Below, piece after piece: positions 10,733 to 35,172 of a stretch of DNA of 64,000 nucleotides. The stretch's first letter is position 1; each line of letters opens with the position of its first letter. The position numbers were made by a program, and so were the translations under genes. This DNA comes from Undibacterium pigrum. Its GTDB lineage: Bacteria > Pseudomonadota > Gammaproteobacteria > Burkholderiales > Burkholderiaceae_D. The notes beneath the pieces were generated by a model, which was given only the letters and a program-made list of their open reading frames with translations, was not told where the DNA came from and did no database searches. The DNA lies in the NCBI RefSeq assembly GCF_003201815.1, contig NZ_QJKB01000001.1, forward strand, positions 186,001 through 250,000. Direction: 5' to 3'.

Positions 10733-10758
10733 TTTCGATTTTATACAGATTTGCCACT

Positions 10759-12372: not shown

Positions 12373-12459
12373 GAGATTGTCACTTGGCACAGCGTGACAG
12401 GCATTTGCCTGCCATACTCTGCTAAAGCGATGATCCAATAATGGATTCATTCACACTAA

Positions 12460-12831
<372 letters not shown>

Positions 12832-12833
12832 AT

Positions 12834-14021
12834 ATGAAGAAGTTAAAGCAGTTGGCAGTACATGAATTTGTTGGTGTTTCAAAAGCAATAGCAAAAACAA
12901 AAATAGGGGTGGCACTGGTGTTGATGGCGATGGCAAATGTCCATGCTGAAACCGGTGTCACCGACAAGAAAATTTTACTGGGGCAGTCCGCTGCATTTTC
13001 CGGACCCGCTGCGCAGTTGGGCATACAGTTGAATTCTGGTGCCAAGGTTTATTTTGATCAGGTCAATGCCACAGGTGGGGTATATGGCCGCAAGATTGAA
13101 ATCATACAAAAAGATGACAAGTATGAGGCAGATTTGGCGGCATCCAATACCAAAGCACTGATAGAAAATGATGGTGTGTTTGCTTTATTCGGCTATGTAG
13201 GTACAGCCACCAGTAATGCAGCGCTCCCCATTTTTACGCAAGCAAAAGTTCCTTTCTTTGCCCCCTACACTGGTGCGCAATCTTTGCGTGAACCTTTCAA
13301 CAAGCAAATTTTCAATATCCGGGCAAGCTATAACGATGAGACTGAATATCTGATCGACCGCCTGGCGAATCTGGGTACTAAAAATATCGCCGTTTTTTAC
13401 CAGAACGATGCCTATGGCAAGGCCGGTCTGGCTGGCGTAGAACTGGCGATGAAAAAAAGGAACTTGCGCGTTTCTGAGGTAGCAACAGTAGAGCGCAATA
13501 GCCTTGATGTGGCCGCAGCGGTGAGCAAGCTTTTGCCCAAACGTCCGGACGCCATCATCCAGATCAGTACCTATGCCGCGAGTAGTGCACTGGTCAAGGA
13601 AATGCGCAAGGCATCCTACACAGGCATGTTCTACAACGTGTCCTTTGTCGGCAGCCAAGCGTTGGCGGATACACTCGATAAAGATGGCGTGGGCGTGGTG
13701 ATTTCTCAGGTGACTCCATTTCCTTGGTCACCATCCATACCTGTTGTGGCTGAATATACCAAAGCACTGGAAAAGGCAGGCAACAAAAACCTGAATTTCT
13801 CCAGTCTGGAAGGCTATGTTGCTGCCAAGGTATTTGTTGAGGGCCTGAAGCGTGCCGGTCCTGGCCTGACCAGAGAAAAACTGGTGTCTGCTTTGGAAAG
13901 CATCAATCGCAGTAGTTATGATGTCGGCGGTTTTGACGTCAGCTTCTCACCTTCGAATCATAACGGTTCAAAATATGTGGATATGACCGTTATTTCCAAA
14001 GACAAGAAGTTCCGCAATTAA
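12834..14021 (+). CDS. ABC transporter periplasmic substrate-binding protein, LivK/amide type
   Basis: A 395-residue type I periplasmic binding protein (Peripla_BP_6 fold). The N-terminus is unusually long: about 24 mostly polar residues precede the hydrophobic core, with cleavage likely near A38 (NVHA/ETG). The mature protein starts with KILLGQSAAFSGPAAQLG, a hallmark of the branched-chain amino acid / urea / amide binders, and contains GYVGTATSNAALP and FYQNDAYGKAGL. The ligand cannot be told from sequence. No permease or ATPase lies beside it. It is two bases behind glnB and probably translationally coupled; livM-livG-livF at the right edge of the window is a possible partner. Confidence 0.9.
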   Translation: MKKLKQLAVHEFVGVSKAIAKTKIGVALVLMAMANVHAETGVTDKKILLGQSAAFSGPAAQLGIQLNSGAKVYFDQVNATGGVYGRKIEIIQKDDKYEADLAASNTKALIENDGVFALFGYVGTATSNAALPIFTQAKVPFFAPYTGAQSLREPFNKQIFNIRASYNDETEYLIDRLANLGTKNIAVFYQNDAYGKAGLAGVELAMKKRNLRVSEVATVERNSLDVAAAVSKLLPKRPDAIIQISTYAASSALVKEMRKASYTGMFYNVSFVGSQALADTLDKDGVGVVISQVTPFPWSPSIPVVAEYTKALEKAGNKNLNFSSLEGYVAAKVFVEGLKRAGPGLTREKLVSALESINRSSYDVGGFDVSFSPSNHNGSKYVDMTVISKDKKFRN

Positions 14022-14027
14022 GTTTGC

Positions 14028-14057
14028 TGCGCCTGTGCCCGACAGGGTTCAGGCGCA
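14028..14057. terminator. Hairpin between convergent genes
   Basis: TGCGCCTG (14028-14035) pairs with CAGGCGCA (14050-14057) around a 14-base loop. It lies just after the binding-protein stop and before the Smr stop. No T-run follows, so intrinsic termination would be weak; it may protect mRNA 3' ends. Confidence 0.45.
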
Positions 14058-14066
14058 TTAGCTAAT

Positions 14067-14702
14067 TCAGGATTTTAGCAGCACGATCAAGGCACCTGAG
14101 CCACCATCAGCCGCAGTCGCCTGACTGAACGCCAATACTTCATCTTTCTGTATCAGCCAGTTCCTGACTTTTTGTTTCAGCACAGGTTCCTTGTTGACCG
14201 ACCCCAAGCCTTTACCATGGATGATGCGTACACAACGCGTGCCATTGCGCATGCACTTGCGCAGGAATTCTCCCAGGCTATCTCTGGCTTCATCACGACG
14301 CAAGCCATGTAGGTCAAGTTGCGCCTGTATGACCCAGTGGCCTTTACGCAGCTTCCTGACGACATCCTGACCTACACCTGATCTGGTATAGCTCAGGTTT
14401 TCATCAGTTTCCAGTAAAGAATCAGCGTCAAACTCATCCGACAAGGATTCTTGTAGTGCTGCCTGTTCATCTGCAATGTGCTGAAATGGCAGTGGTTCAA
14501 GACGAGCGGGCGCGGGGTGATGTTTCACCACTGTTTTCAAAGCTTCGACCTTGCCTACACTGGAACGAAAAATATTGGCCTCTTCCCTGGCTTTCTTTTC
14601 CCGTTCCAGACGTTCTGCTTCGGCACGCTGTCGGCTTTCTTCTTGTTGCTTTAGTTGCTGACTGAGTGACTTCAGGTCAGCAAGATTTTTAAAAGACGAC
14701 AT
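14067..14702 (-). CDS. Smr-domain protein
   Basis: A 211-residue protein with a charged coiled-coil N-terminus (residues about 10-45, rich in Glu/Arg/Lys) and a C-terminal Smr domain. The Smr motifs LDLHGLRRDEA and IIHGKGLGS are intact; these loops form the nucleic-acid-nicking or RNA-binding site in MutS2/SmrA-type proteins. Bacterial stand-alone Smr proteins have been linked to ribosome-collision rescue and to DNA or RNA cleavage; which applies here is not known. It follows trxB on the same strand after 21 bases, so the two are probably co-transcribed. Confidence 0.88.
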   Translation of the reverse strand: MSSFKNLADLKSLSQQLKQQEESRQRAEAERLEREKKAREEANIFRSSVGKVEALKTVVKHHPAPARLEPLPFQHIADEQAALQESLSDEFDADSLLETDENLSYTRSGVGQDVVRKLRKGHWVIQAQLDLHGLRRDEARDSLGEFLRKCMRNGTRCVRIIHGKGLGSVNKEPVLKQKVRNWLIQKDEVLAFSQATAADGGSGALIVLLKS

Positions 14703-14723
14703 GCTTACTTCCTTGACCTGAAC

Positions 14724-15701
<978 letters not shown>

Positions 15702-15938
15702 TTACTAGTAGCAGATGGCGTTTTTCATGCAAATTTCAAGTTTTTTGCTGATTTTGCATCGCTATTCTGAGATAAGGGTAAATTATAGACTATCCTCACA
15801 GTGGTCGTCTTCCCGCCGTAGTGGGCCGGGCTTCGGTATCTGTTTCAACTGTTACAGTGCACAAGTTTGGCGCATACACGGCTTCATGCTATCTTGTCAG
15901 CTTTTGATGGCTGTCCGAATGAGGTTGCTCTCTGTTTT

Positions 15939-18275
15939 ATGACTACTGGTAACGAAGCTTATACTCGAAGCAAGAAAACTGCAGCACCTGCAGCGCCACC
16001 TAACCGCTTTCTGGTCTTGTTGATGGAAGCAAAATGGATAGCTCTTGCCGCATTCTGCATTTGCCTGATACTCATCATGGCAACTTACTCCACGCAAGAC
16101 CCTGGCTGGTCGCGCTCGGTGGATATCCCGCGTGTACACAATATTGCCGGTAAATTTGGCGCCTGGCTGTCAGACGTGCTGTTCTATGTATTCGGCATTT
16201 CGGCATGGTGGTGGTGTGTATTTGCCTGCCGTCAGGTATGGATTTCGTACAGCAATTTATCGCAAAGGGTGAAACTCAACCCCGATCCGGAACCTGATGT
16301 CGGTTTTTCTGAAATTCTGGTGCGCAATATTGGATTTGGCCTGTTATTGGCCGGCAGCATGGGCCTGGAATACTTGCGCATGCACAGCCTTAAAGTGGCT
16401 TTGCCACTCGGGCCGGGCGGAGTGCTGGGTGAATTGCTGGGTAAGGCCGGTTTTGCAGCGCTGGGTTTCACCGGCGCGACCCTGGCCTTATTGCTGATGA
16501 TTGCTTTAGGTATCAGCCTCTATTTCCACGTATCCTGGCTGACCATCGCAGAGCGCATAGGCGCGGGCATAGAGTGGGTGTTTGTGTTTGTACAAAATAA
16601 ACATGCCGATGCAGAAGACCGGCGTGCTGGCCAGACTGCAGCCGTCAAGCGTGAAGAAGTCGTAGTACAAGAGAGAGCCAAGATCGTTGAGGCTGCACCA
16701 ATACGTATAGAACCGCAAGTAGTTGCTGTGCAGCGTTCCGAGCGTGTGGAAAAAGAAAAGCAGGTATCTCTGTTTAATGAACTGCCAGATACCAATCTGC
16801 CACCTTTGTCTTTGCTGGATGAGCCGCCTCCAGTGCAGGAAACTGTCAGCGTACAAACCCTGGAATTTACCAGCCGCCTGATAGAGAAAAAACTCTCAGA
16901 CTTTGGTGTCGATGCCAAGGTGGTGGCAGCTTACCCGGGCCCTGTGGTTACCCGCTATGAAATTGAACCTGCTACTGGCGTCAAGGGTAGCCAGATCGTC
17001 AATCTGGCGCGTGATCTGGCGCGGTCCTTGTCACTGACATCGATACGCGTGGTTGAAACCATCCCCGGCAAAAATTACATGGGTCTGGAATTGCCAAACC
17101 CCAAGCGCCAGATTGTGCGCCTGACCGAAATTCTGGGTTCCAAGGTCTATAACGACAGCTCATCAAGCCTGACTGTGGCACTGGGCAAAGATATTGGTGG
17201 CCTGCCTATCTGCGCTGATTTGGCCAAGATGCCGCATTTGCTGGTAGCTGGTACTACCGGTTCTGGTAAGTCTGTAGGTATCAATGCCACCATTCTCTCG
17301 CTGCTGTACAAGTCAGATCCTAACGATGTGCGCATGATACTCATTGATCCAAAAATGCTGGAGATGTCGGTGTATGAAGGCATACCGCATTTGCTGGCAC
17401 CAGTGGTGACTGATATGCGCCAGGCAGGGCACGCCCTGAACTGGGCGGTGGCAGAGATGGAACGCCGTTACAAGCTGATGTCCAAGCTTGGTGTGCGTAA
17501 TCTGGCGGGCTATAACGCCAAAATTGCTGAGGCAACCCGCAAGGAAGTGCATATCCCCAATCCCTTCAGTTTGACGCCAGATGCGCCAGAGCCTCTTGAA
17601 AAACTGCCAACCATCGTCATTATTATTGATGAGCTGGCTGATTTGATGATGGTGGTCGGCAAAAAGGTAGAGGAATTGATTGCCCGTATCGCGCAAAAAG
17701 CCCGTGCTGCGGGTTTGCATCTGATACTGGCGACGCAAAGGCCATCGGTAGACGTGATCACTGGCCTGATCAAGGCAAATATTCCTACCCGTATCGCCTT
17801 CCAGGTCAGCAGCAAAATAGATTCACGTACCATTCTTGACCAGATGGGTGCAGAAGCCCTGCTGGGCATGGGTGACATGCTTTACATGCCACCAGGTACA
17901 GGCTTGCCTGTGCGTGTACACGGGGCTTTTGTCTCGGATGAAGAAGTACATCGCGTTGTTGAATATTTGAAATCACAGGGCGAGCCAAATTATGTAGAAG
18001 GCATACTCGAAGGCGGCACGCTGGAAGAGGGCGGCGAAGCTGGTGGCGAGAGTGCTGGCGCAGGTGGTGGCGAATCAGATGCCTTGTACGACCAGGCAGT
18101 TGCCATCGTCCTCAAAAATCGTCGCGCCTCGATCTCGCTGGTGCAAAGACATTTACGCATAGGCTATAACCGTGCAGCCCGTTTGCTGGAACAAATGGAA
18201 CAAAGTGGTGTCGTATCTACCATGCAGTCCAACGGCAACCGTGAAATCCTGGTTCCTGCCGGAAATACAGAATAA
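15939..18275 (+). CDS. ftsK: DNA translocase FtsK
   Basis: Septum-located motor that pumps chromosome ends apart and activates XerCD at dif. The 778-residue protein has an N-terminal membrane region of about four helices, a short charged linker (residues about 210-305, far shorter than in E. coli), a RecA-like motor with Walker A GTTGSGKS (438-445) and Walker [11 protein letters not shown], and a C-terminal winged helix (gamma domain, from about residue 712) that reads KOPS sequences. I chose ATG 15939; an upstream in-frame TTG at 15867 would add 24 residues without hydrophobic or conserved content. lolA and rarA follow on the same strand. Confidence 0.97.
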
Positions 18276-18328
18276 AGCAGCAGAATAAAGCGACAGAATA
18301 ATTGCCACAGAATAGCAGCGACAGAATA
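18268..18328 (+). repeat. Five CAGAATA repeats, 13-14 base period, in the ftsK-lolA gap
   Basis: CAGAATA begins at 18268, 18281, 18294, 18308 and 18322. The first copy covers the end of ftsK including its stop codon; the last ends eleven bases before the lolA GTG. The regular spacing marks an expanded imperfect tandem repeat. Confidence 0.85.
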
Positions 18329-18338
18329 GGATAAATCA

Positions 18339-18992
18339 GTGAAGAAACAAGCAAACATGATGGCAAAACTGGTGGCAGGTGCGTTTGCACTTGCCATGAT
18401 ACCTGCATGGGCATCCGCTACTGCGGTTGATCAGTTCAAATCCTTCGTTACCAATAATAAAAGTGCCAAAGGTGAGTTTACCCAGCAGCAAGTCAAGATG
18501 GTTGATGGCAATCCCAAGATCAGCAAGACAGCAACTGGCAATTTTGTGTTTGCCCGTCCGGGCAAATTTATCTGGTCTTATGTCAAGCCGTATGAGCAAG
18601 TCTTGCAGGCAGATGGTGACAAACTTTACATCTATGACAAAGACCTGAATCAGGTCACGATACGTCCACTTGGCAATTCTCTGGGTTCCAGTCCCGCAGC
18701 CATTTTGTTTGGCAGTGCTGGTTCGGCTGACCTGGACAAGAATTTCAATTTCAAGGAGATCGGTACCAAGCAAGGTCTGGAATGGCTGGAAGCCACGCCC
18801 AAAGCCAAGGATTCACAGTTTGAAACCATAGGCATAGGCATGAAAGATGGCGTGCCTGTTGCTTTAGAATTGCACGACAATTTTGGTCAATTTTCTACTC
18901 TGACCCTGAAGAACCTGGAAAAAAATCCTGCCTTGAAGCCTGAGCAATTCAAGTTTGTCGTGCCTGCCGGTGCCGATGTATTTAGACAGTAG
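18339..18992 (+). CDS. lolA: Outer-membrane lipoprotein carrier protein LolA
   Basis: Periplasmic chaperone that carries lipoproteins from LolCDE to LolB. The 217-residue precursor has a signal peptide ending near PAWASA, then KGEFTQQQVK, a strand pattern typical of LolA, and the conserved GNFVFARPGKFIWSYVKPY segment. The GTG at 18339 keeps two lysines before the hydrophobic core; an internal ATG at 18357 would leave a poor signal peptide. It sits between ftsK and rarA, the usual order. Confidence 0.95.
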   Translation: MKKQANMMAKLVAGAFALAMIPAWASATAVDQFKSFVTNNKSAKGEFTQQQVKMVDGNPKISKTATGNFVFARPGKFIWSYVKPYEQVLQADGDKLYIYDKDLNQVTIRPLGNSLGSSPAAILFGSAGSADLDKNFNFKEIGTKQGLEWLEATPKAKDSQFETIGIGMKDGVPVALELHDNFGQFSTLTLKNLEKNPALKPEQFKFVVPAGADVFRQ

Positions 18993-25420: not shown

Positions 25421-25510
25421 GGAGAAGTGGCAGAGTGGTTGAATGTACCTGACTCGAAATCAGGCGTAGTAGCAATACTATCGGGGGTTCGAATCCCTCC
25501 TTCTCCGCCA
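25421..25510 (+). tRNA. tRNA-Ser (anticodon CGA)
   Basis: Ninety bases with a seven-base acceptor stem (GGAGAAG pairing with CTTCTCC), anticodon arm CCTGA-CTCGAAA-TCAGG giving anticodon CGA (reads UCG), a long variable arm (GTAGTAGCAATACTATC) typical of class II tRNAs, the T-loop TTCGAAT and an encoded CCA end. Confidence 0.98.
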
Positions 25511-25522
25511 TAATTATTGATT

Positions 25523-25555
25523 AAGCCCTTGATTTTAAAGGGCTTTTTCTTTTTC
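25523..25555 (+). terminator. Rho-independent terminator after tRNA-Ser
   Basis: AAGCCCTT pairs with AAGGGCTT (loop GATTTTA region) and is followed by TTTTTCTTTTTC. Confidence 0.85.
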
Positions 25556-25779
25556 TATTCTCCCCGGTATGTCATTTGGTATGCCATCTTGATGTGGCTT
25601 TAGATGGGCGTGCTTGGACAATGTTTTCTAAGCTCTCAGATTTACTGAATGCTTGTGAAGACACCGACTTCAAATTTGTTAATGCATTTTTCCTGAAGCT
25701 GCATTGTTTTGTTCGGGCCTCGGTTTCGCATTACTCATCAAGTAACTTGGCGCAGATCGCATTTTGGAGCGCTTGGTAG
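25556..25779. other. Gene-free stretch after tRNA-Ser
   Basis: A 67-codon open frame (25576-25779, plus strand) has no recognisable family, no ribosome site and no conserved-looking composition. I see no second copy of the tRNA 3' end that would mark an attachment site. It is probably non-coding, and perhaps part of the decayed insertion that follows. Confidence 0.5.
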
Positions 25780-25789
25780 TTATATTCCC

Positions 25790-26000
25790 CAAGGTGTTCG
25801 TTTGTTGGCTAAATTGACCCTGTCAGTTTGATCCACCTTAGACTTCCTGGCGAAGGCGGCCACCCGGTCATACGGCCCTTCAAATCCCAGTTCGTTCAGA
25901 TCCAGATGAAGTTGTTTTAAGCTTCGTCGCTGCTTGCGATTCTTGCCAGCTTCGGTTTTAAGCCAGCTTGACAGCTGCAATGCATATTTGTCGATGGCAC
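25790..26000 (-). pseudogene. IS21-family IstA transposase fragment
   Basis: The minus frame encodes DKYALQLSSWLKTEAGKNRK, then QRRSLKQLHLDLNELGFEG and YDRVAAFAR. This strongly resembles an internal stretch of IS21-type IstA, where a KQRRTLKQLHADL-like phrase is usual. Only about 65 residues of a protein of roughly 500 remain, with no helix-turn-helix and no DDE residues. It begins in a different frame where the IS3-like fragment stops, so the two were joined by deletion or by one element inserting into another. Confidence 0.75.
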
Positions 26001-26246
26001 TGTCGTTTGTCAGAATATCTCTGCCTTGAGCGAACATAGCCCGCCTGCAGAGCGTGACTTTGCTCGTATTCTCGATACCAGCTCATGAGTGCATTCTTTG
26101 TTGGATAGCCCAATTGCCGAATGGTAGGGCGAATGCGCTTCCCGAGCTTGATATAAAGCTTGATCGCTCGAATGCGGTCTTCGTATGGGTACATGAGCTA
26201 CCTCCAAGTAGTCCAAGTTATTGTCCGCATCCCCGTGGGTCAATTT
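25811..26246. mobile_element. Decayed insertion-sequence mosaic bounded by 10-bp inverted repeats
   Basis: AAATTGACCC at 25811-25820 and its exact inverse GGGTCAATTT at 26237-26246 bracket a 436-bp segment that holds the two transposase fragments of different families. No target duplication was recognised. It may be a remnant, or a small non-autonomous element using another element's transposase. Confidence 0.5.
26000..26194 (-). pseudogene. IS3-family OrfA fragment (N-terminal helix-turn-helix)
   Basis: From ATG 26194 the frame reads MYPYEDRIRAIKLYIKLGKR, then IRQLGYPTKNALMSWYREYE and GYVRSRQRYSD, the N-terminal helix-turn-helix of IS3-group OrfA proteins. Recognisable sequence stops near 26000 after about 63 residues. 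OrfB is absent. AGGTAGC before the ATG may be the original ribosome site. It cannot transpose on its own. Confidence 0.78.
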
Positions 26247-26884: not shown

Positions 26885-27712
26885 ATGAATCCTCACGCAG
26901 TACCGTCTATCACTCCCTATAGCTTGCTCGTTTCATTGAAGCAGCATCGCAGACTCATACTCAGTTTGATACAGCGAGAGGTGCTAATCCGTTATCAGGG
27001 TTCCTTGCTTGGTTTATTGTGGTCCTTCTTTAATCCAGTGCTGATGCTGGCGGTGTATACCTTTGTGTTTAGTGTGGTGTTCAAGGCGCGCTGGGCAGGT
27101 GGATCTGATTCCAAGACTGAATTTGCACTGGTCTTGTTTGCAGGGCTGATGGTGTTTGGCTTGTTTTCGGAATGTGTCAACCGTGCGCCATCGCTGGTGG
27201 TCAGCAACGTTAACTACGTCAAGAAAGTTATTTTTCCTTTGGAAATTTTGCCTGTAGTTGCCATGGGAGCTGCCTGCTTTCATCTGCTGATCAGCCTCAC
27301 AGTGTGGCTGATTTTTTATTCCATATTTTTTGGTGTGCCACCAGCGACGATATTTTATCTGCCTGCAGTCTTATTGCCTCTGGTGTTGTTAAGCCTGGGG
27401 TTGAGCTGGTTGCTGGCTTCGCTTGGTGTTTTTATTCGCGACATCCATCAGGTGGTTGGTGTCGCTATCTCGGTGCTGACATTTTTGTCGCCGGTGTTTT
27501 ATCCCATTGTCGCCTTGCCTGAAGATTTTCGGGCAGTAGTGCAGGTCAGCCCTTTGACACAGGTTATAGAACAAAGTCGCGATGCCATGATCTGGGGTAA
27601 ACATCTGGATTGGCAAAGCTGGTTGATTTATTGCATGGTTTCTGGCGTGATCGCCTGGTTGGGATTTGCCTGGTTTCAAAAAACGCGCAAGGGGTTTGCT
27701 GATGTCCTCTAA
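26885..27712 (+). CDS. wzm: Polysaccharide ABC exporter, permease (Wzm type)
   Basis: A 276-residue ABC-2 type membrane protein with about six helices. LIQREVLIRYQGSLLGLLW near the N-terminus and FLSPVFYPIVALPEDFR in the C-terminal half are hallmarks of Wzm/TagG/RfbA permeases, which move undecaprenyl-linked glycans across the inner membrane. The ATG at 26885 is the only sensible start; an upstream TTG (26867) adds six residues. Its end overlaps the Wzt gene by eleven bases, showing coupled synthesis of the two transporter halves. Confidence 0.94.
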   Translation: MNPHAVPSITPYSLLVSLKQHRRLILSLIQREVLIRYQGSLLGLLWSFFNPVLMLAVYTFVFSVVFKARWAGGSDSKTEFALVLFAGLMVFGLFSECVNRAPSLVVSNVNYVKKVIFPLEILPVVAMGAACFHLLISLTVWLIFYSIFFGVPPATIFYLPAVLLPLVLLSLGLSWLLASLGVFIRDIHQVVGVAISVLTFLSPVFYPIVALPEDFRAVVQVSPLTQVIEQSRDAMIWGKHLDWQSWLIYCMVSGVIAWLGFAWFQKTRKGFADVL

Positions 27713-29051
27713 ATTTGCCATCAAGGTCGAGCAACTGAGCAAGTGCTACCACCTTTACGACAAGCCGCAGGACAGGCTCAAGCAAATGCTGCTGTCACGT
27801 GCCAAAACTTATTATCGTGAATTCTGGGCCTTGCGTGATGTGTCTTTCGAGATCGCGCCAGGTGAAACAGTGGGCATCATAGGGCGTAATGGCAGCGGCA
27901 AGTCCAGTCTCTTGCAAATGATATGCGGCACTTTATCTCCTACGGCGGGCATAGTTACCACACATGGCCGGGTTGCAGCTTTGCTGGAATTGGGGGCTGG
28001 ATTCAATACCGAATTTACCGGGCGCGAAAATGTCTTGCTCAACGCCGCCATTCTGGGTTTCCCACAAGAGCAGATGCTGGGCCGCATGGATGAAATACTG
28101 GCGTTTTCCGAGCTGGGTGATTTCCTGGACCAGCCTGTCAAGACTTATTCCAGTGGCATGTATGCCCGCCTGGCATTTTCGATTGCCATTCATGTCGATC
28201 CTGAAATACTGATCGTTGATGAAGCCCTGGCGGTAGGTGATGCCCGCTTTGTTGCCAAGTGTATGCGTCGTATCAAGGATATACAAAAAACCGGTGCCAG
28301 TATTTTGTTTGTCAGCCATGACGTCAGCTCGGTACGCACCTTGTGCGATCGCGCTATCTGGCTGGACAAGGGCCGTATGCTGGAACAGGGCGATGTTTTT
28401 CCTGTGACCGGGCGGTATATGGAAATGATGTTTCAGGACGATGATGCCGCAGCTGTTGAAGATGAAAAAGTACAACCTGTAGCCAGCGTATCCATGTCTG
28501 GCGCAGATTTACCTGGCATCAGCGAGAGCTTAAATAATGCAGAGGAGGTAGCTCTTGATAGCAGGCCAACTACGCATTGGGGATCGCACAAGGGCCTGAT
28601 ACTTTCTGCATCTGTACTTGACGCGAATGGCGTACGCAGGGATGTGCATGAGTGGGGTAGCGAACTGGATGTCAGGATCAGTTTGCGCATCCCGGCGAGC
28701 ATATCGCGCGAACATTTAAGTATTGCCGTGTCCATCAAGGATTTAAAAGGCAGCGACCTCATCGTTTCGACTACACATGATTTTGTAGCGAAGCGTTTGC
28801 CAGATGCCGAGCAATTTGAAGTCAGCTTCAAGCTGAGCAACCCCCTGGTCACAGGTAAATATCTGTTGGTGGCAGCGGTAGAAAATCGCCTGCACCGGGA
28901 TATTCATTATTACGAATACATAGAAGGTGCGCATTATTTCTCATCGCTTGCAGACCAGCGTTTTTTTGGTTTATTCCAGCCGCCGATAGCACAAGAGGTA
29001 GTGGTGCCAGTGACGCAAGTGACCAATGCCAGGCAGGTGCTGGCAGCGTAA
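27702..29051 (+). CDS. wzt: Polysaccharide ABC exporter, ATPase with C-terminal cargo-recognition-type domain (Wzt type)
   Basis: A 449-residue protein. The ATPase part (1 to about 250) has Walker A GRNGSGKS (61-68), signature YSSGMYARLAFSIA (149-162) and Walker B ILIVDEAL (169-176). A linker leads to a beta-rich C-terminal domain (about 285-449; WGSHKGLILSASVLDANG, DLKGSDLIVSTT, LVTGKYLLVAAV), as in Wzt proteins that read a modified chain end before export. In E. coli O8/O9a this domain binds the capped terminus; by analogy this system should need a cap, and the next gene encodes a methyltransferase. It overlaps wzm by eleven bases. Confidence 0.94.
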   Translation: MSSKFAIKVEQLSKCYHLYDKPQDRLKQMLLSRAKTYYREFWALRDVSFEIAPGETVGIIGRNGSGKSSLLQMICGTLSPTAGIVTTHGRVAALLELGAGFNTEFTGRENVLLNAAILGFPQEQMLGRMDEILAFSELGDFLDQPVKTYSSGMYARLAFSIAIHVDPEILIVDEALAVGDARFVAKCMRRIKDIQKTGASILFVSHDVSSVRTLCDRAIWLDKGRMLEQGDVFPVTGRYMEMMFQDDDAAAVEDEKVQPVASVSMSGADLPGISESLNNAEEVALDSRPTTHWGSHKGLILSASVLDANGVRRDVHEWGSELDVRISLRIPASISREHLSIAVSIKDLKGSDLIVSTTHDFVAKRLPDAEQFEVSFKLSNPLVTGKYLLVAAVENRLHRDIHYYEYIEGAHYFSSLADQRFFGLFQPPIAQEVVVPVTQVTNARQVLAA

Positions 29052-29097: not shown

Positions 29098-31692
29098 ATG
29101 CAAACAGAAATTAATTCCCGTGCGTATTGGGATACGCGATTTGATAACGATTGGCTGGCCTGCAAGGGTGATAAGCAATCGCGTTTTTTCGCCAGAGTCG
29201 CCATTCAACACTTACCATCCTGGTTGCTGGATCAAATTCGCCAGCAAGAATTCAGCCTGGCTGACTGGGGCTGCGCTCAGGGTGATGGTACGGATGTCTG
29301 GGCCAGCTATGTAGTAGCAGAAAAAATTACTGGTGTGGATTTTTCTGCCTCTGCGATTCAACAAGCCAGTGCTCGTTATCCAGGCTTGCAGTTTGTCAAT
29401 AGCAACTGGCTGGAACAAGCAGTTGGCACACAGGATAATTTCGACCTGGTGTTTTCTTCAAATACGCTGGAACATTTTCACCAGCCTTATCAGGTGTTGC
29501 ACACCATCAGTCAACGTGCCAGGAAGGCGGTCGTACTGGCTTTGCCTTATCGCGAGCTGGAGCGTGATAGCGAACATTTTTATTCTTTTCTTCCGGAAAA
29601 TATACCGCTGCAACTGGAAAACGGTTTTAGCCTGATCTGGGCCAAGGTAGTGGATTGCCGCAATCTGGAGAACAGCTTATGGCAGGGTGATCAGGTCATC
29701 CTGATGTATGCAGATACTGCCTGGACCAAAAAGCTGGGCTTGCGCCTGAGCCAGGTTCATTTGATGCAACAGGATACGCATTCTGAGCTGCATCAATTGC
29801 AGGAAGTATTGAGCAAAAATCAGTTGCTATTGCAACAGTCACAGCAAGCACAAGAAAAGCTGGCACTGGAAAACACACATCAGCAAGACATGCTTGCCCA
29901 ACATGAGCAATTCCGCCTGCAACAGCAACAAGATCACGCTGGTTTGCTAGAGAAATACGAAACGCTCCAGCAGGATGTACAAGCACGCGATCAGCAAATT
30001 TCCATTCTCAATGAGAAGTTCAGGAATCGTGAACATGATTTGCAAACTCAGTTAAGCGATATGCAAGCGCAGATGAGTAAGGAAGCTGAAGCGCAAACAC
30101 AGTTTTTGCAAGCCGCGCAAACTGATGTCGCAGCACGCGATGCGAAACTGCAGCAACTCAATGCCAGCCATCAGCAATTGTCAGAAAGCTTGCAACAAAA
30201 AGAACAAAACTACGCCAAATTATTGCAACAGCTTGACTTGCGTGATGCACAAATGGCGAGATTGAACCTGGATGTACATGGCAAGGAAGAAGCCATCAAA
30301 TCCCTGAAGCAATCTTTTTCCTGGGTATTGACACGGCCCTTGCGTTTTACCAAACAGTTTGTGCAAAGCCCTGGCCGTGCCTCTTATGACCTGGCCAAGT
30401 TCGTATTCTGGCGCTTGCCGGCAAAAATGCGCTGGGCCTTGCATGGCCCGAGACATGATTTTGTGCGCTGGGTGCGTACTGCACCGGCTGGTGCAGCACC
30501 TCAGACATTTACTGCAGGCGCGCCTGTAGTGGCAGATCCCTTTGCGGGCAATGCCGTGTTAGCGAAGGCGGCAAACAAGGATTTAAGCTGGCCAGAATTC
30601 CAGCAGCAAGTATTGTCGCGTCGCGCTGATTACAAAGGCATCTTCGTGCAAGAGCTGGTCATAGACTGGAATGTGCCTCTGTATCAACGTCCCCAGCATA
30701 TCGCTGCTGCCTTTGGCCGCCTTGGTTATCTGGTGATCTATCGTACCGACAACTGGGCTGGCGATGATGTGCAGGGTTGCCGTGAAGTGGTCAAGAATGT
30801 CTGGATCACCAACCGTCATGAAATCAATCAATTGCAGGACGTGACGCGCTCTCTGTATTCGACAGCCTATGCGAATACGCCGGAACTGCTGCTGGAAAAT
30901 GGCAAGCGTGGCACCCTGGTATATGAATACATCGACCATATTGATCCACAAATCAGTGGCGACGAAGAAAATGTAAGGCGCTTATTGGCATTGAAGGACT
31001 TTGCTTTCAATGGCGGTGCAGATTATGTCGTCGCATCTGCCAAGAAACTCGAAGCAGAAGCAATTGCTGCCGTGGGTGCTGACAAGGTCATCCTGGCGCA
31101 AAACGGTGTGGATACGGCGCACTATCGCCATCCCAAACACCTGAGTACGCCCTTGCCACAAAACTTGCAGAACTTCCGCAAGAAATATAACAAAGTCGTC
31201 GGCTATTTTGGTGCGCTGGCACCTTGGCTCTGGTATGAAGCCGTGGCTGACCTGGTGACCAGCCGTCCTGATCTTGGCTTTGTGTTTATCGGGCCAGACT
31301 ATTACGGTGGCTCTGAGAAATTGCTCAAGGCTGACAATCTTTTGTATATGGGCACGGTTGACTACCAGATACTGCCTGCCTATGCGCGCCAGTTTGATGT
31401 TTGCTTTATCCCGTTTGCGCCGGGGGAAATTGCCCGTACGACTTCGCCACTCAAATTGTTTGAGTACTTTGCACTGGAAAAACCTGTCGTTGTTACCCGG
31501 GACATGGAAGAGTGCGTCGCTTTTGAAGAAGTATTTTCCGGCAATAGCGTGGAAGCACTCAGCGATGCGCTGGATGCCGCCTTCGTAGTCAAGGACGATC
31601 CTGCATTTACCCAACGCCTGGCGCAACTGGCTGATGCCAATGACTGGGACTGCCGTGCCAGGGCCATGGAGAAAGCCTTTGAAAAGGCTTGA
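29098..31692 (+). CDS. Fusion: SAM methyltransferase - long coiled coil - glycosyltransferase
   Basis: An 864-residue protein. The N-terminal class I methyltransferase (about 1-215) has the SAM loop ADWGCAQGDG (55-64), the acidic turn TGVDFS and FDLVFSSNTLEHF. Residues about 222-406 are almost purely heptad-like, rich in Gln, Glu and Leu. After SFSWVLTRPLRFTKQF comes a GT-B-like glycosyltransferase (about 510-860) with QRPQHIAAAFGRLGY, a VGYFGALAPW block and SPLKLFEYFALEKPVV. I used ATG 29098; GTG 29080 is an alternative. It lies 46 bases after wzt. The architecture recalls WbdD, in which methylation stops chain growth and a coiled coil sets chain length, but WbdD has a kinase and no glycosyltransferase. 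The chain-ruler role is my inference. Confidence 0.85.
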   Translation: MQTEINSRAYWDTRFDNDWLACKGDKQSRFFARVAIQHLPSWLLDQIRQQEFSLADWGCAQGDGTDVWASYVVAEKITGVDFSASAIQQASARYPGLQFVNSNWLEQAVGTQDNFDLVFSSNTLEHFHQPYQVLHTISQRARKAVVLALPYRELERDSEHFYSFLPENIPLQLENGFSLIWAKVVDCRNLENSLWQGDQVILMYADTAWTKKLGLRLSQVHLMQQDTHSELHQLQEVLSKNQLLLQQSQQAQEKLALENTHQQDMLAQHEQFRLQQQQDHAGLLEKYETLQQDVQARDQQISILNEKFRNREHDLQTQLSDMQAQMSKEAEAQTQFLQAAQTDVAARDAKLQQLNASHQQLSESLQQKEQNYAKLLQQLDLRDAQMARLNLDVHGKEEAIKSLKQSFSWVLTRPLRFTKQFVQSPGRASYDLAKFVFWRLPAKMRWALHGPRHDFVRWVRTAPAGAAPQTFTAGAPVVADPFAGNAVLAKAANKDLSWPEFQQQVLSRRADYKGIFVQELVIDWNVPLYQRPQHIAAAFGRLGYLVIYRTDNWAGDDVQGCREVVKNVWITNRHEINQLQDVTRSLYSTAYANTPELLLENGKRGTLVYEYIDHIDPQISGDEENVRRLLALKDFAFNGGADYVVASAKKLEAEAIAAVGADKVILAQNGVDTAHYRHPKHLSTPLPQNLQNFRKKYNKVVGYFGALAPWLWYEAVADLVTSRPDLGFVFIGPDYYGGSEKLLKADNLLYMGTVDYQILPAYARQFDVCFIPFAPGEIARTTSPLKLFEYFALEKPVVVTRDMEECVAFEEVFSGNSVEALSDALDAAFVVKDDPAFTQRLAQLADANDWDCRARAMEKAFEKA

Positions 31693-31746: not shown

Positions 31747-32913
31747 ATGAAAAAAATACTGTGTGTAGTTGGTACGCGCCCTGAAGCCATCAAGATGGCT
31801 CCCGTCATACTTGCCTTGCAACAGCAACCCTGGGCGCAAGTGCGCGTCCTGGCGACTGCCCAGCACAGGCAGATGCTGGACCAGGTATTAGCTTTCTTTG
31901 ATATTGAAGCCGACATCGATTTGAACATGATGCGCCCCAACCAGTCACTGACCACATTGACTGGCCGCATGTTGCTTGATCTGGATGAAGTCTTGCTGGC
32001 AGAAAAGCCGGATGTGGTTTTGGTACAGGGTGATACAACGACAGTGATGACAGTATCGCTGGCCTGCTTCTATCACAGAATAGCCATAGGCCATGTGGAA
32101 GCCGGTTTGCGCACCTGGGACAGGGATAATCCATTCCCGGAAGAGATCAATCGCGTACTGACTGGCCGTTTGGCGCACTGGCATTTTGCACCTACTGAAA
32201 GCTCACGTCAGAATCTCTTGAAAGAGGGCGTCTCAGATACCGACATTATCGTCACTGGCAATACCGTGATCGATGCCCTGTTGATGACGGCAGAACGTGA
32301 CCTCGACCTGGGCATAGAGCTTGATGCCAGCAAGCGCCTGGTATTGGTGACTTCTCACAGACGTGAAAATTTTGGTGAACCTTTTGCGCATATCTGCCGC
32401 GCCATACTCAAGCTGGCAACAGATAATCCGGACGTGCAATTCCTTTATCCTGTGCATCCAAATCCAAACGTCAAGGAAGTTGCCCACGCTACCCTGGGGC
32501 AATGTGCCAATATTCATTTGTGTGAACCGCTGGACTATGCCCCCTTTGTCGCAGCCATGAAGCGTGCCTACCTGATCATCAGCGATTCTGGTGGTGTGCA
32601 GGAAGAAGCACCTGCTCTGGCAAAACCTGTACTGGTCTTGCGCGAAGAAACCGAGCGTCCTGAGGCAGTGGAGCAGGGTGTAGTGAAACTGGTGGGTGCC
32701 AATTTTGAAAATATCGTCGCCGAAGCCCAAATCCTGCTGGATGATGAGGCAGCTTACCGTGCCATGGCCAGGGGTGTATCTCCTTATGGCGATGGCCTGG
32801 CGGCAGGACGTATTGTGCAAGTGCTGCAGCAGCATTTCGCCGGCGAACCGGCATCTGCACTTCAGCCGGTTGATGCGGAGCTTGAAGTTGGCTTAGAAAC
32901 TGAGCCTGCATGA
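31747..32913 (+). CDS. wecB: UDP-N-acetylglucosamine 2-epimerase (non-hydrolysing)
   Basis: Interconverts UDP-GlcNAc and UDP-ManNAc. The 388-residue length is normal. GTRPEAIKMAPVI (9-21), D96 in VLVQGDTTT, HVEAGLRT (E118), the H204 segment VTSHRRENFG and the C-terminal DSGGVQEEAP with REETERPEA are all present. No wecC-type dehydrogenase is beside it, so the glycan probably contains ManNAc itself, or an enzyme elsewhere uses the product. The stop codon overlaps the next start (ATGA at 32910-32913). Confidence 0.97.
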   Translation: MKKILCVVGTRPEAIKMAPVILALQQQPWAQVRVLATAQHRQMLDQVLAFFDIEADIDLNMMRPNQSLTTLTGRMLLDLDEVLLAEKPDVVLVQGDTTTVMTVSLACFYHRIAIGHVEAGLRTWDRDNPFPEEINRVLTGRLAHWHFAPTESSRQNLLKEGVSDTDIIVTGNTVIDALLMTAERDLDLGIELDASKRLVLVTSHRRENFGEPFAHICRAILKLATDNPDVQFLYPVHPNPNVKEVAHATLGQCANIHLCEPLDYAPFVAAMKRAYLIISDSGGVQEEAPALAKPVLVLREETERPEAVEQGVVKLVGANFENIVAEAQILLDDEAAYRAMARGVSPYGDGLAAGRIVQVLQQHFAGEPASALQPVDAELEVGLETEPA

Positions 32914-34124
32914 TGCGCCTCGTCTATTTCTCGCCTGTACCCTGGCATAGCTTTGCACAAAGGCCGCATCAGTTTGTGCAGTGGTTTCATCAGCAATTCA
33001 AAGCCAGGGTGTTGTGGGTAGATCCTTATCCCACACGCTTGCCGGGCATCGCTGATGTGCAACGCATACTTGCAGCGAAAATGGAGCAAAAGCCGCGCTC
33101 TTGTTCAACTGTGAAAACACAGGAAAACCCGCTACAGGCAGACTGGCTGAAGCTGGTGGAAGTGCCAGCACTCCCCATAGAGCCATTGCCTGCCTCAGGT
33201 TATCTGCACCAATGGCTATGGCGCAAGACCATGGCAGAAATAGACGCTTTCATCTCTGGCGGCAAGACACAGATTGTGGTGGGCAAGCCTTCCAAGCTCG
33301 CCTTGCAAGCCATGGCACGTCATCCTGAACTGCCTTCTCTTTACGATGCCATGGATGATTTTCCTGCTTTCTATGAAGGTATTTCCAGTAAGGCCATGGA
33401 ATTTACTGAGCGCCACCTGGCTGCCAGGGTAAATAAAATTGTAGTGTCTTCCAGTGCTGTATCAAGGTTTTCTGAGCATGAAGATAAACTCAGCCTGATT
33501 TTGAATGCCTGTGACAGTGACAATCTGCCCCCCGCATTGCCAAGGTCAGCGCAGGCACCTGTATATGGCTATGTCGGCACCATAGGCCACTGGTTTGACT
33601 GGGAGGCGCTGGTGAAACTGGCGTCTTCACTGATTATCAGCGATCCGCAGGCGCGTGTTCGGCTGATAGGCCCGGTGTTCACGCCGCCACCATGCGCCTT
33701 GCCAGACAATGTGCAAATCCTGCCTGCATGCAGCCATGCGGAAGCGATGCGCGCCATGCAAAAGTTTTCCGTCGGACTGATCCCGTTCAAGCGCAAGCTG
33801 TTGACGGCATCGGTGGACCCTATCAAATATTATGAATACCGCTCCCTGGGCATACCTGTTTTGTCTTCGAATTTCGGTGAAATGTCATTGCGGGCAGAAG
33901 AAGACGGTGTGTTCTTATACGACGAAGGTAGCAAGTTTTCCCGGCTGCTCAAGGCATGCCTGCTACATCGCAGTAGTGCAGAAAGCCTGGTCAGGTTCAG
34001 GGCCAACAATTCCTGGCAGGCCAGGTTTGCTGGTTTGATCCCCTTGTTTGACTCCAATATTGATCGCTGGGGCAGAAGAAGATCAACCGCCAAGCTTGAG
34101 CAATTTACCTGGCAGGGCGCTTAG
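32910..34124 (+). CDS. Glycosyltransferase, GT-B fold
   Basis: A 404-residue glycosyltransferase. The N-terminal WHSFAQRPHQFVQWFHQQF resembles the QRP segment of the fusion protein upstream, and the C-terminal IPFKRKLLTASVDPIKYYEY resembles its SPLKLFEYF donor-binding block, so the two are probably distant paralogues. There is no signal peptide or membrane helix; it should act at the cytoplasmic face of the inner membrane on a lipid-linked acceptor. Donor and acceptor are unknown. It overlaps wecB by four bases and ends ten bases from the convergent acyltransferase. Confidence 0.87.
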   Translation: MMRLVYFSPVPWHSFAQRPHQFVQWFHQQFKARVLWVDPYPTRLPGIADVQRILAAKMEQKPRSCSTVKTQENPLQADWLKLVEVPALPIEPLPASGYLHQWLWRKTMAEIDAFISGGKTQIVVGKPSKLALQAMARHPELPSLYDAMDDFPAFYEGISSKAMEFTERHLAARVNKIVVSSSAVSRFSEHEDKLSLILNACDSDNLPPALPRSAQAPVYGYVGTIGHWFDWEALVKLASSLIISDPQARVRLIGPVFTPPPCALPDNVQILPACSHAEAMRAMQKFSVGLIPFKRKLLTASVDPIKYYEYRSLGIPVLSSNFGEMSLRAEEDGVFLYDEGSKFSRLLKACLLHRSSAESLVRFRANNSWQARFAGLIPLFDSNIDRWGRRRSTAKLEQFTWQGA

Positions 34125-34134
34125 AGATAGGCCT

Positions 34135-35172
34135 TTAGCGTTCAAAGCGCGTTTTCCAGCCCAGGAACCAGGATTCATAATAGCGGAAGCTGACGCTGGC
34201 CACGGCGGTGGTGATGAGCAGGGTGAGCAGGAAGACTGTGATACCTGCATCGGTAACGTGGAACGCGTTTAACAGCTTGCTGACTAAGTTCTTGCACAGC
34301 ATATGCAGCATATACATGCCGTAGCTGATCGTTCCCAGGTAGGCGAGGGGCTTGAATGTAAGCAAGCCTGTGAGGGGATGCTGTTCCCGTATCACGCAAG
34401 AACCTACCAGTGCCGCAAACAATATGGATGAAACAAAGCCAGGCACGACATTGCTGAGCAGACCAAGCAGTAATGCAACGAAAGCCAGTGGTGCAGACCA
34501 TGTCTGTCCAAGCAGGGCGTACAGCCACATAAAAGTTTTTTCATGGTGCATGCCTATCGCCAGCAAGGCACCGAGGACGATGGGCAGTTGAATCACATCA
34601 AGACCTTGCAGGCCCAGTAATTGACTCATGATGCAAGCCGTGATGACGACTATCAGGATGAGGCTGGCTCGTCTGGCTGTTCCTGCTAATAAAAGCAATG
34701 GCGGCCACACCAGGTAAAATTGTTCTTCAGCGGCCAGCGACCAGGCAAAATAAAAAATCACCCGCCCATCCAGAGCTACAAATAAATTCGATGTATAAGT
34801 GGCGAAGTAAATCAGGTTCTGGAAAAAAGCCTGGCCTACCGCTGTATGGCGTTCAAGCAAAAATACCAGGATGATATACAACGCCAATGTGCCGTAATAC
34901 AGCGGGAAGATACGCAAGGAACGGCGCAGGTAAAATGCCTTGAGATCTATCTTGCCATTGCGTTCGCGCTCTCTGAGCAACAAGCTGGTGATCAAAAAAC
35001 CGCTGATGGCAAAGAATAATTGCACGCCTTGCGCACCTATACTGGCAAGGATTGCATGAACGCTGGCCGGGGCAGTGTGATGCCAGATGACGGCAATGAT
35101 GCTGATGGCACGCAAGCCATCAAGGGACTCAAATCTTTTATTGGACAGATATGCGGCAAACGGCTTAAGCAT
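34135..35172 (-). CDS. Membrane acyltransferase, family 3 (OafA/NodX-like)
   Basis: A 345-residue integral membrane protein with about ten helices. RFESLDGLRAISIIAVIWHH places the conserved Arg and the catalytic-type His (H31/H32) as in acyltransferase-3 enzymes, which O-acetylate sugars of O-antigens and other surface glycans. QLFFAISGFLIT, LRRSLRIFPLYY and WSLAAEEQFYLVWP are further family blocks. It lacks the extra SGNH domain of OafA. Convergent with the polysaccharide operon, it probably decorates the same glycan. The 5' leader appears long and contains a Fur-like box about 240 bases upstream. Confidence 0.92.
   Translation of the reverse strand: MLKPFAAYLSNKRFESLDGLRAISIIAVIWHHTAPASVHAILASIGAQGVQLFFAISGFLITSLLLRERERNGKIDLKAFYLRRSLRIFPLYYGTLALYIILVFLLERHTAVGQAFFQNLIYFATYTSNLFVALDGRVIFYFAWSLAAEEQFYLVWPPLLLLAGTARRASLILIVVITACIMSQLLGLQGLDVIQLPIVLGALLAIGMHHEKTFMWLYALLGQTWSAPLAFVALLLGLLSNVVPGFVSSILFAALVGSCVIREQHPLTGLLTFKPLAYLGTISYGMYMLHMLCKNLVSKLLNAFHVTDAGITVFLLTLLITTAVASVSFRYYESWFLGWKTRFER

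What the first reader, a model, noticed from the sequence alone, without database searches (positions are those of the whole stretch)
29098..31692. Methyltransferase - coiled coil - glycosyltransferase fusion: a possible WbdD-like chain ruler with different catalytic parts
Seen: SAM-binding loop at 55-64, about 185 residues of Gln/Glu/Leu-rich heptads (222-406), then a GT-B-like glycosyltransferase. It sits directly after a Wzt with an extended C-terminal domain. Known: in E. coli O8/O9a, WbdD caps the glycan (methyltransferase plus kinase), its coiled coil sets chain length, and the Wzt C-terminal domain reads the cap. Inference: this protein may couple chain end methylation to extension in one molecule, so that the coiled-coil length sets polymer length.
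Basis: partly seen in the sequence, partly recalled or inferred. Interest (0 to 1): 0.72.

Follow-up and report, generated by a model that had tools for sequence, protein, structure and literature searches.

The report
Likely methyl-capping polysaccharide chain ruler
This bacterium of the genus Undibacterium carries a single protein that most likely builds a surface sugar chain at one end, caps it with a methyl group at the other, and uses a long coiled rod in between to decide how long the chain gets; the design is known from a few bacteria, but this kinase-free version, and how its parts are shuffled, look new.

Summary
Window 29098-31692 encodes an 864-aa protein: methyltransferase (MT, aa 1-217), Pro-free heptad-patterned helical region (218-405), cationic amphipathic segment (406-462), GT-B glycosyltransferase (496-864). 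It follows a Wzt whose C-terminal domain resembles cap-binding domains. Of the 80 best MT relatives in GTDB genomes, 60 start within 300 bp of a Wzt of 400 aa or more. Best reading: a chain terminator whose MT O-methylates the chain end, the Wzt domain reading that cap and the coil spacing polymerase from terminator. The class is known (K. pneumoniae O7 ORF6, WbbB, WsaE, WbdD); a kinase-free MT-coil-single-GT form was not met in 9 literature searches. New: the MT half is inherited with the transporter (Spearman 0.71-0.81), hardly with its own GT half (0.29); in Undibacterium, Wzt cap domain and MT occur in the same 7 of 43 genomes; coils of 188, 173 and 155 aa occur in relatives with gap-free MT and nearly gap-free GT, a natural test series. 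Cap chemistry and length control are inferred, not shown.

The parts
26885..27712 (+). wzm, ABC-2 permease (start ATG 26885 by alignment to relatives; ORF open from TTG 26867)
   Evidence: PF01061 E 1.5e-25; the closest relatives align from residue 7 of the listed ORF
27702..29051 (+). wzt, ATP-binding subunit with extended C-terminal domain (likely ATG 27702, my choice of start; ORF open from TTG 27666)
   Evidence: PF00005 E 1.8e-22 and PF14524 Wzt_C E 2.1e-17
28572..28976 (+). Wzt_C cap-binding-type domain (aa 303-437 of the 461-aa ORF)
   Evidence: the profile's PDB hits below E 0.28 are 4 sequences of A. aeolicus Wzt; 17 of 17 Foldseek matches at E<=0.001 are Wzt chains
29098..31692 (+). 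MT - coiled coil - GT fusion protein, 864 aa
29098..29748 (+). methyltransferase domain, aa 1-217
   Evidence: Pfam PF08242/PF13847/PF13649/PF08241; model confident here
29263..29289 (+). SAM-binding loop, aa 56-64 (DWGCAQGDG)
   Evidence: sequence; conservation in 81 domains
29749..30312 (+). heptad-patterned helical region (coiled coil), aa 218-405
   Evidence: shuffle test, AlphaFold2 helices 227-318 and 343-404
30313..30483 (+). cationic, amphipathic segment aa 406-462 (SxSWxLTxPLR...), candidate membrane anchor
   Evidence: net charge +9; highest 18-residue hydrophobic moment of the protein starts at aa 410
30583..31689 (+). GT-B glycosyltransferase domain, aa 496-864
   Evidence: PF13692, Foldseek, TuaH model hit aa 640-857 E 7.1e-21 but 74.5 bits against a cut-off of 550
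31747..32913 (+). wecB-type UDP-GlcNAc 2-epimerase
   Evidence: TIGR00236 488 bits, over cut-off
32910..34124 (+). second, stand-alone GT (TuaH-like)
   Evidence: weak PF13692 E 0.021, NF047676 E 5.5e-8 below cut-off; syntenic in the closest relatives
34135..35172 (-). acyltransferase family 3, possible O-acetylation enzyme; matched in 3 of 12 related stretches compared
   Evidence: PF01757 E 4.6e-30; L022, L024, L025

Best explanation
A bifunctional polymerase-terminator of the ABC-transporter-dependent polysaccharide pathway. The C-terminal GT-B domain, held at the inner membrane by the amphipathic segment after the coil, adds sugars to an undecaprenyl-linked chain (perhaps with the stand-alone GT at 32910-34124). 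The N-terminal methyltransferase, held at the far end of the coiled coil, O-methylates the non-reducing end once the chain can reach it; this stops growth. The C-terminal domain of the neighbouring Wzt recognises the methylated end and admits the chain to Wzm-Wzt. Shown here by computation: domains, SAM site, coil, gene neighbourhood, relation of the Wzt domain to a methyl-cap-binding domain, co-inheritance of MT and transporter. Inferred: that the methyl goes on a terminal sugar hydroxyl (no kinase domain is present, so not methyl-phosphate), that the GT is the polymerase, and that coil length sets chain length.
For: Domain anatomy. Coil significant against shuffles. 60 of 80 MT relatives directly after a Wzt >=400 aa; those 60 and the window's all match Pfam Wzt_C at E<=0.001 (61 of 61). 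The Wzt domain profile finds in the PDB only A. aeolicus Wzt sequences at meaningful E (8dky 2.6e-4, 6o14, 7k2t, 8dku), the domain that binds 3-O-methyl-mannose and not mannose (PMC9445017, passages). In Undibacterium the Wzt domain and the MT at E<1e-90 are found in the same 7 of 43 genomes. MT~transporter similarity 0.71-0.81, MT~own GT 0.29 over 43 loci. No room for a kinase between aa 217 and the coil. Terminator at the distal end of a coil and polymerase at the membrane end is the arrangement reported for O7 and O12 (PMC11231755).
Against: No chemistry, no chain-length data. The specific Wzt-cap-domain~MT signal beyond the rest of the transporter is small: partial r 0.155-0.165, p 0.008-0.016 with 499 permutations, while NBD~MT given the cap domain is 0.57, so co-transfer of neighbouring genes explains most of it. 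15 of 80 MT relatives have only a short Wzt (6) or no Wzt match over 100 bits (9) in the fetched stretch; of the 9, several are cut by contig ends and L050 has a Wzt fragment with the cap domain just upstream, but L046 and L077 show no Wzt match within about 10 kb upstream. [quoted passage not shown] The Wzt-domain fold also matches the Kdo-reading (5hno) and O9a (2r5o) domains, so fold alone does not tell the cap.
Confidence: 0.7

Rival explanations
1. The coil is a scaffold for oligomerisation and membrane assembly; its length drifts neutrally and chain length is set by something else (stoichiometry, export rate). The MT still caps.
For: The coil is the least conserved part (75% identity against 93% MT and 97% GT in the closest relative) and takes 15 of 18 gap columns there, as expected for a loosely constrained coil; lengths range widely (MT end to anchor motif 60-306, median 137, in the 42 of 80 proteins where a loose motif was found). 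WsaE methylation was length-independent in vitro.
Against: Coils in the same position are reported as rulers in E. coli O9 and K. pneumoniae O12 (PMC11231755); the coil-like score was at least 20 in 54 of 80 relatives.
Confidence: 0.25
2. The MT decorates internal residues or a precursor rather than capping the end; the fusion just co-localises enzymes.
For: Methyl decorations inside repeat units exist in general (recalled); in 15 of 80 relatives no long Wzt was seen in the fetched stretch.
Against: Tight linkage to a Wzt with cap-type domain (60 of 80; Wzt_C in 61 of 61) and the relation of that domain to a methyl-cap reader.
Confidence: 0.1
3. The cap is methyl-phosphate, as in O9a/O7, with the kinase supplied by another protein.
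For: Known caps of this class include methyl-phosphate (PMC11231755).
Against: No kinase domain in the protein and none among the 5 neighbouring proteins scanned; the Wzt domain is closest by sequence to the 3-O-methyl-sugar reader, and the O9a domain 2r5o was not among the profile's hits up to E 1.
Confidence: 0.06
4. The exported chain is not LPS O antigen but another surface glycan (capsule-like or S-layer-type); the mechanism is otherwise the same.
For: MT relatives occur in Firmicutes such as Paenibacillus and Cohnella, which make no LPS (general knowledge); the window locus holds few sugar genes; the genome has a second ABC exporter with a Wzt_C domain.
Against: Gram-negative host with three Wzy_C (WaaL/Wzy-type) matches elsewhere in the genome.
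Confidence: 0.25

Closest known systems
Klebsiella pneumoniae O7 ORF6 (MT-kinase-CBM-coiled coil-two GT modules)
   Same: N-terminal terminator with MT, central coil, C-terminal polymerase GTs in one protein, in a cluster with wzm/wzt (PMC11231755, passages and part 1 of sections 11 and 13)
   Different: O7 has a kinase and a CBM between MT and coil and two GT modules; here no kinase, no CBM, one GT-B module.
WsaE, Geobacillus stearothermophilus S-layer glycan
   Same: N-terminal sugar O-methyltransferase (2-O-methyl cap) fused to GTs, next to wzm-wzt (PMC2943079, passages)
   Different: Two GT modules, Gram-positive S-layer glycan; 'coiled' occurs 0 times in that review. Sequence not compared.
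WbdD (E. coli O9a; MT-only homologue in O8)
   Same: Terminator with MT and coiled-coil ruler; an MT-only form suffices in O8 (PMC3482155, passages)
   Different: Polymerase WbdA is a separate protein; O9a WbdD has a kinase; WbdD not among the 22 PDB sequences matched by the MT profile at E<=0.01
WbbB, K. pneumoniae O12
   Same: Polymerase, coil ruler and terminator in one polypeptide (PMC11231755)
   Different: Terminator is a Kdo transferase, not an MT
Aquifex aeolicus Wzt carbohydrate-binding domain
   Same: Closest PDB sequence relatives of the window's Wzt C-terminal domain
   Different: About 18% identity in the structural match; the methyl-stacking Trp362 of the paper lies at a Tyr invariant in the 17 domains, by my reading of the alignment with an inferred one-residue offset

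Membership tests
Coiled-coil chain terminators of ABC-dependent glycan pathways | catalytic terminator module (MT, kinase or GT) at the distal end of an extended coil | tested here: met
   MT aa 1-217, coil 218-405; that the MT terminates is inferred
Coiled-coil chain terminators of ABC-dependent glycan pathways | encoded with Wzm and a Wzt carrying a cap-binding C-terminal domain | tested here: met
   60 of 80 relatives directly after a long Wzt
Coiled-coil chain terminators of ABC-dependent glycan pathways | membrane-associated amphipathic helix after the coil | tested here: inconclusive
   sequence only: net +9, highest hydrophobic moment at aa 410-427; membrane binding not testable here
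Coiled-coil chain terminators of ABC-dependent glycan pathways | modifies the chain end and so sets chain length | not testable with these tools
   needs glycan chemistry and mutants
WbdD (MT-kinase-coil) | kinase domain | tested here: not met
   no Pfam kinase hit; helix starts at aa 227, right after the MT
WbdD (MT-kinase-coil) | MT of the WbdD sequence family | tested here: not met
   WbdD entries not among 22 PDB sequences hit by the MT profile at E<=0.01; a weaker relation is not excluded
K. pneumoniae O7 ORF6 type | MT-kinase-CBM-coil-two GT modules | tested here: not met
   no kinase, no CBM, one GT-B module
WsaE type (MT-GT-GT) | MT fused to two rhamnosyltransferase modules, 2-O-methyl cap | tested here: not met
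   one GT module in the window protein; three relatives (L095, L099, L101) have MT plus two GT2 stretches. WsaE itself not compared; cap not testable
Wzt cap-binding domain (PF14524) | Pfam Wzt_C over gathering cut-off and CBD fold | tested here: met
   63.9 bits against 30.4; 17 of 17 Foldseek matches at E<=0.001 are Wzt chains

The most novel reading that the evidence does not exclude
Wzm-Wzt-MT-coil is one portable 'cap, measure, export' cassette, and the protein is a chimera at heart: its N-terminal half belongs evolutionarily and functionally to the exporter, while the polymerase half is a plug-in that is exchanged by recombination at the coil/anchor junction. Coil length is a fast-evolving dial, so bacteria re-tune chain length without touching either enzyme.
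Probability: 0.4. Interest if true: 0.66.

Novelty: new variant of a known kind. Interest (0 to 1): 0.47.

Why it matters
In the papers I saw, how a coil measures a polymer is worked out for a few proteins of E. coli and Klebsiella. Here Undibacterium relatives with MT 78-93% and GT 92-97% identical to the window's differ in coil length (188, 173, 155 residues), a natural length series in one genus that makes 'coil length sets chain length' directly testable. The exchange of polymerase halves behind a conserved cap-and-export half also suggests how ABC-exported polysaccharides diversify, and which pieces could be combined in glycoengineering.

Tried and rejected
A kinase hidden between MT and coil: rejected, the helix starts at aa 227 in the model. 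Filing under WbdD: rejected on the kinase and MT-family features. A strong specific co-evolution of MT with the Wzt cap domain over and above the whole transporter: weak (partial r 0.155-0.165), so not claimed; the cap domain's partial correlation with the GT part was negative (-0.21 to -0.24). Reading the cap from the Wzt fold: rejected, Foldseek matches methyl-sugar, Kdo and O9a readers alike. Horizontal island by GC: no clear shift at 27-35 kb (0.48-0.53 per kb against 0.42-0.54 in the rest of 20-42 kb). Plasmid carriage of the MT: 1 of 72,556 plasmid records at E<=1e-20, Paraburkholderia fungorum. The segment starts printed by my coil script are unreliable (a flaw in the script) and are not used; only scores and motif distances are. 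The cap-domain profile was built from the same 60 Wzt proteins it found, so that part is circular; the independent count is. Prior description: answered searches did not show this protein; [quoted passage not shown] PMC2238763 (passages) was of no use. Most subscription papers are not in that library.

Rows dropped before counts: the 43-locus comparison used only loci with an adjacent long Wzt (L078 included), a Wzm and at least 330 aa after the MT, out of 80; the anchor motif was found in 27 of those 43, and for the other 16 the GT part was cut at a quarter of the tail. The 80 loci are the best of 94 confirmed from 126 pattern matches. Wzt was counted at over 100 bits with the window's Wzt as query, so very distant ones may be missed. 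The 20 loci not in the 60: 9 without a Wzt match (L046, L050, L077, L083, L086, L087, L090, L092, L098), 6 with a short one (L049, L060, L084, L088, L100, L106), 4 with a long one farther off (L051, L069, L091 2.7-3.7 kb upstream; L101 downstream), and L078, whose called start overlaps its long Wzt and which would make 61.

Full report
What is there. The finding's ORF is real: window 29098-31692 (+), 864 aa from ATG 29098, or 870 aa from GTG 29080. Its ATG lies 46 bp after a wzt ORF that ends at 29051, which in turn overlaps wzm. Pfam finds a methyltransferase at aa 56-141 (PF08242, E 1.1e-10) and a group-1 GT C-terminal half at aa 699-825 (PF13692, E 2.6e-7). An AlphaFold2 model on 17 sequences (mean pLDDT 80.3) shows a folded methyltransferase, helices 227-318 and 343-404, short helices to aa 461, an unconfident linker 462-492 and a GT-B domain, whose best Foldseek matches in the PDB are MshA and HepE. 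The segment aa 218-405 lacks proline; 1 of 2000 shuffles reaches its heptad score (my own weights). The next segment, aa 406-462, has net charge +9 and holds the strongest 18-residue amphipathic window of the protein, at aa 410; WbdD is reported to have a membrane-associated amphipathic helix after its coil (PMC11231755, passages).

The partner gene. The Wzt ORF carries Pfam Wzt_C (63.9 bits, cut-off 30.4). A profile of 17 such domains finds in the PDB four sequences of the Aquifex aeolicus Wzt (E 2.6e-4 to 8e-4); the next hit, E 0.28, is a ribosomal protein. [quoted passage not shown] By fold the 17 matches with E<=0.001 are all Wzt chains, including the Kdo and O9a readers, so sequence, not fold, is what points to a methyl-sugar cap.

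Relatives. A pattern scan of GTDB species genomes with the MT domain gave 80 loci (best of 94). L034 is the closest (MT 93%, GT 97%). In 60 of 80 the MT gene starts within 300 bp of a Wzt of at least 400 aa, and those 60 and the window's all match Wzt_C at E<=0.001 (61 of 61). Six loci have only a short Wzt and nine no Wzt match over 100 bits; several of the nine are contig ends and L050 has a Wzt fragment just upstream, but L046 and L077 have the MT fusion with no Wzt match within about 10 kb upstream. Of the 80 MT ORFs, 57 exceed 700 aa; 20 are shorter than 450 aa without reaching a contig end. In L110 the MT lies at aa 394-598, not at the N-terminus. Of 23 family members that I scanned with Pfam, 20 match GT families after the MT (group 1, group 1 plus family 2, two family 2, family 2 alone, group 1 plus WbsX; in L038 and L055 below the curated cut-off) and 3 (L057, L061, L080) match MT families only, apart from a weak helical-domain hit in L057. 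In Achromobacter L061 the MT-coil (365 aa) and a relative of the window's GT (451 bits) are separate genes.

Modules and inheritance. Among 21 loci with a protein over 600 aa, an adjacent long Wzt and an MT at least 50% identical to the window's, 6 have the same GT (45% or more over 80% or more); the other 15 do not. Over 43 loci, similarity of the MT ranks with that of the Wzt nucleotide-binding domain (0.81), Wzm (0.76) and the Wzt cap domain (0.71), but weakly with that of the protein's own GT part (0.29); the cap domain and the GT part give 0.10. The part of the cap-domain~MT link not explained by the rest of the transporter and the GT is small (0.165, p 0.008, 499 permutations), and the ATPase part is linked to the MT more strongly (0.57 given the cap domain), so the fair statement is that MT and whole transporter travel together. 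In the 43 Undibacterium genomes the cap domain alone and the MT alone at E<1e-90 pick the same 7 genomes; 7 further weak MT hits (E 3.6e-6 or worse, 27-32% identity) look like ordinary methyltransferase matches. One of the 7, G012 (U. crateris; L026/L039), has a different GT part plus WbsX. Neighbouring genes move together, so this is consistent with, not proof of, functional coupling. In 369 genomes of the class the cap domain is found in 4: own, G332 and G071, which have the MT next door, and one weak match, G423 (27% identity), not examined.

The coil. Against the window protein, U. umbellatum has 0 gap columns in MT, 15 in the coil, 3 in the linker and 0 in GT; two further same-genus loci have 0, 33, 1 and 3; coil lengths are 188 (window), 173, 155 and 155, and 173, 118, 78, 82 and 86 in five more distant relatives with the same GT. 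With 0.15 nm per helical residue (textbook value) coils of 188, 173 and 155 residues would span about 28, 26 and 23 nm if continuous; the model breaks the helix near aa 314-342.

How it most likely works. The polymerase sits at the membrane end, the terminator at the far end of the rod; when the chain reaches the terminator it is O-methylated and stops; the Wzt domain binds the methylated end and export begins. This order of parts is reported for O7 and O12 of Klebsiella (PMC11231755). Inferred here: methylation of a sugar hydroxyl (no kinase), GT as polymerase, coil as ruler. For chemistry in the same order, Burkholderiales, Paenalcaligenes hominis has a trisaccharide-repeat O antigen capped by 3-O-methyl-L-rhamnose (PMC12308378, passages); whether it has this gene could not be checked.

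Comparison and novelty. By the sequence features testable here it belongs with the coil-bearing terminators of ABC-dependent pathways, but not to WbdD, O7 ORF6 or WsaE in the strict sense (see membership table). The kinase-free MT-coil-single GT layout, the wide family around it and the split inheritance of its two halves are what I did not find described in the searches listed under Tried and rejected; the principle is not new. Hence new variant of a known kind, moderate interest, raised by the natural coil-length series.

Noticed in passing
L126 (G000:C11:146000-165900), 10018-18600: The same genome has a second ABC exporter whose Wzt (414 aa) carries Wzt_C (E 3.7e-26), with a wzm-like gene, a separate 456-aa ORF with an MT at aa 272-380 and a 1122-aa ORF with three group-1 GT stretches. 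Two cap-type exporters in one cell would need cap specificity.
   Followed up: partly
L029 9256-14592, L030 6968-10192, L031 6357-9581: Three other same-genus genomes have, after wzt, a different MT (Methyltransf_23/MetW-like) in 1074-1778-aa proteins with group-1 and family-2 GTs: another likely terminator type in the genus, not found by the window's MT or cap-domain query.
   Followed up: partly
L033 6043-9771: A 1242-aa protein after a short Wzt (253 aa, aligned only over the ATPase part) with group-1 and family-2 GTs and a weak sulfotransferase hit at its N-terminus (PF13469 E 0.0079, under cut-off): perhaps another end modification without a cap reader.
   Followed up: no
window 31747-34124: wecB plus the TuaH-like GT recur beside many of these exporters whatever the polymerase: WecB-like in 51 of 80 loci, GT2-like at E<=1e-5 in 62 of 80, the latter including GT domains of the fusion proteins themselves. 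Possibly a shared adaptor-synthesis pair.
   Followed up: partly
window 25421-26243: tRNA-Ser followed by small minus-strand ORFs that look by eye like broken transposase pieces, between the tRNA and the exporter genes; not searched.
   Followed up: no
L046 9965-13768: Relative of the fusion protein with a second methyltransferase match near its C-terminus (aa 1107-1155) and no Wzt match in the fetched 16 kb.
   Followed up: no
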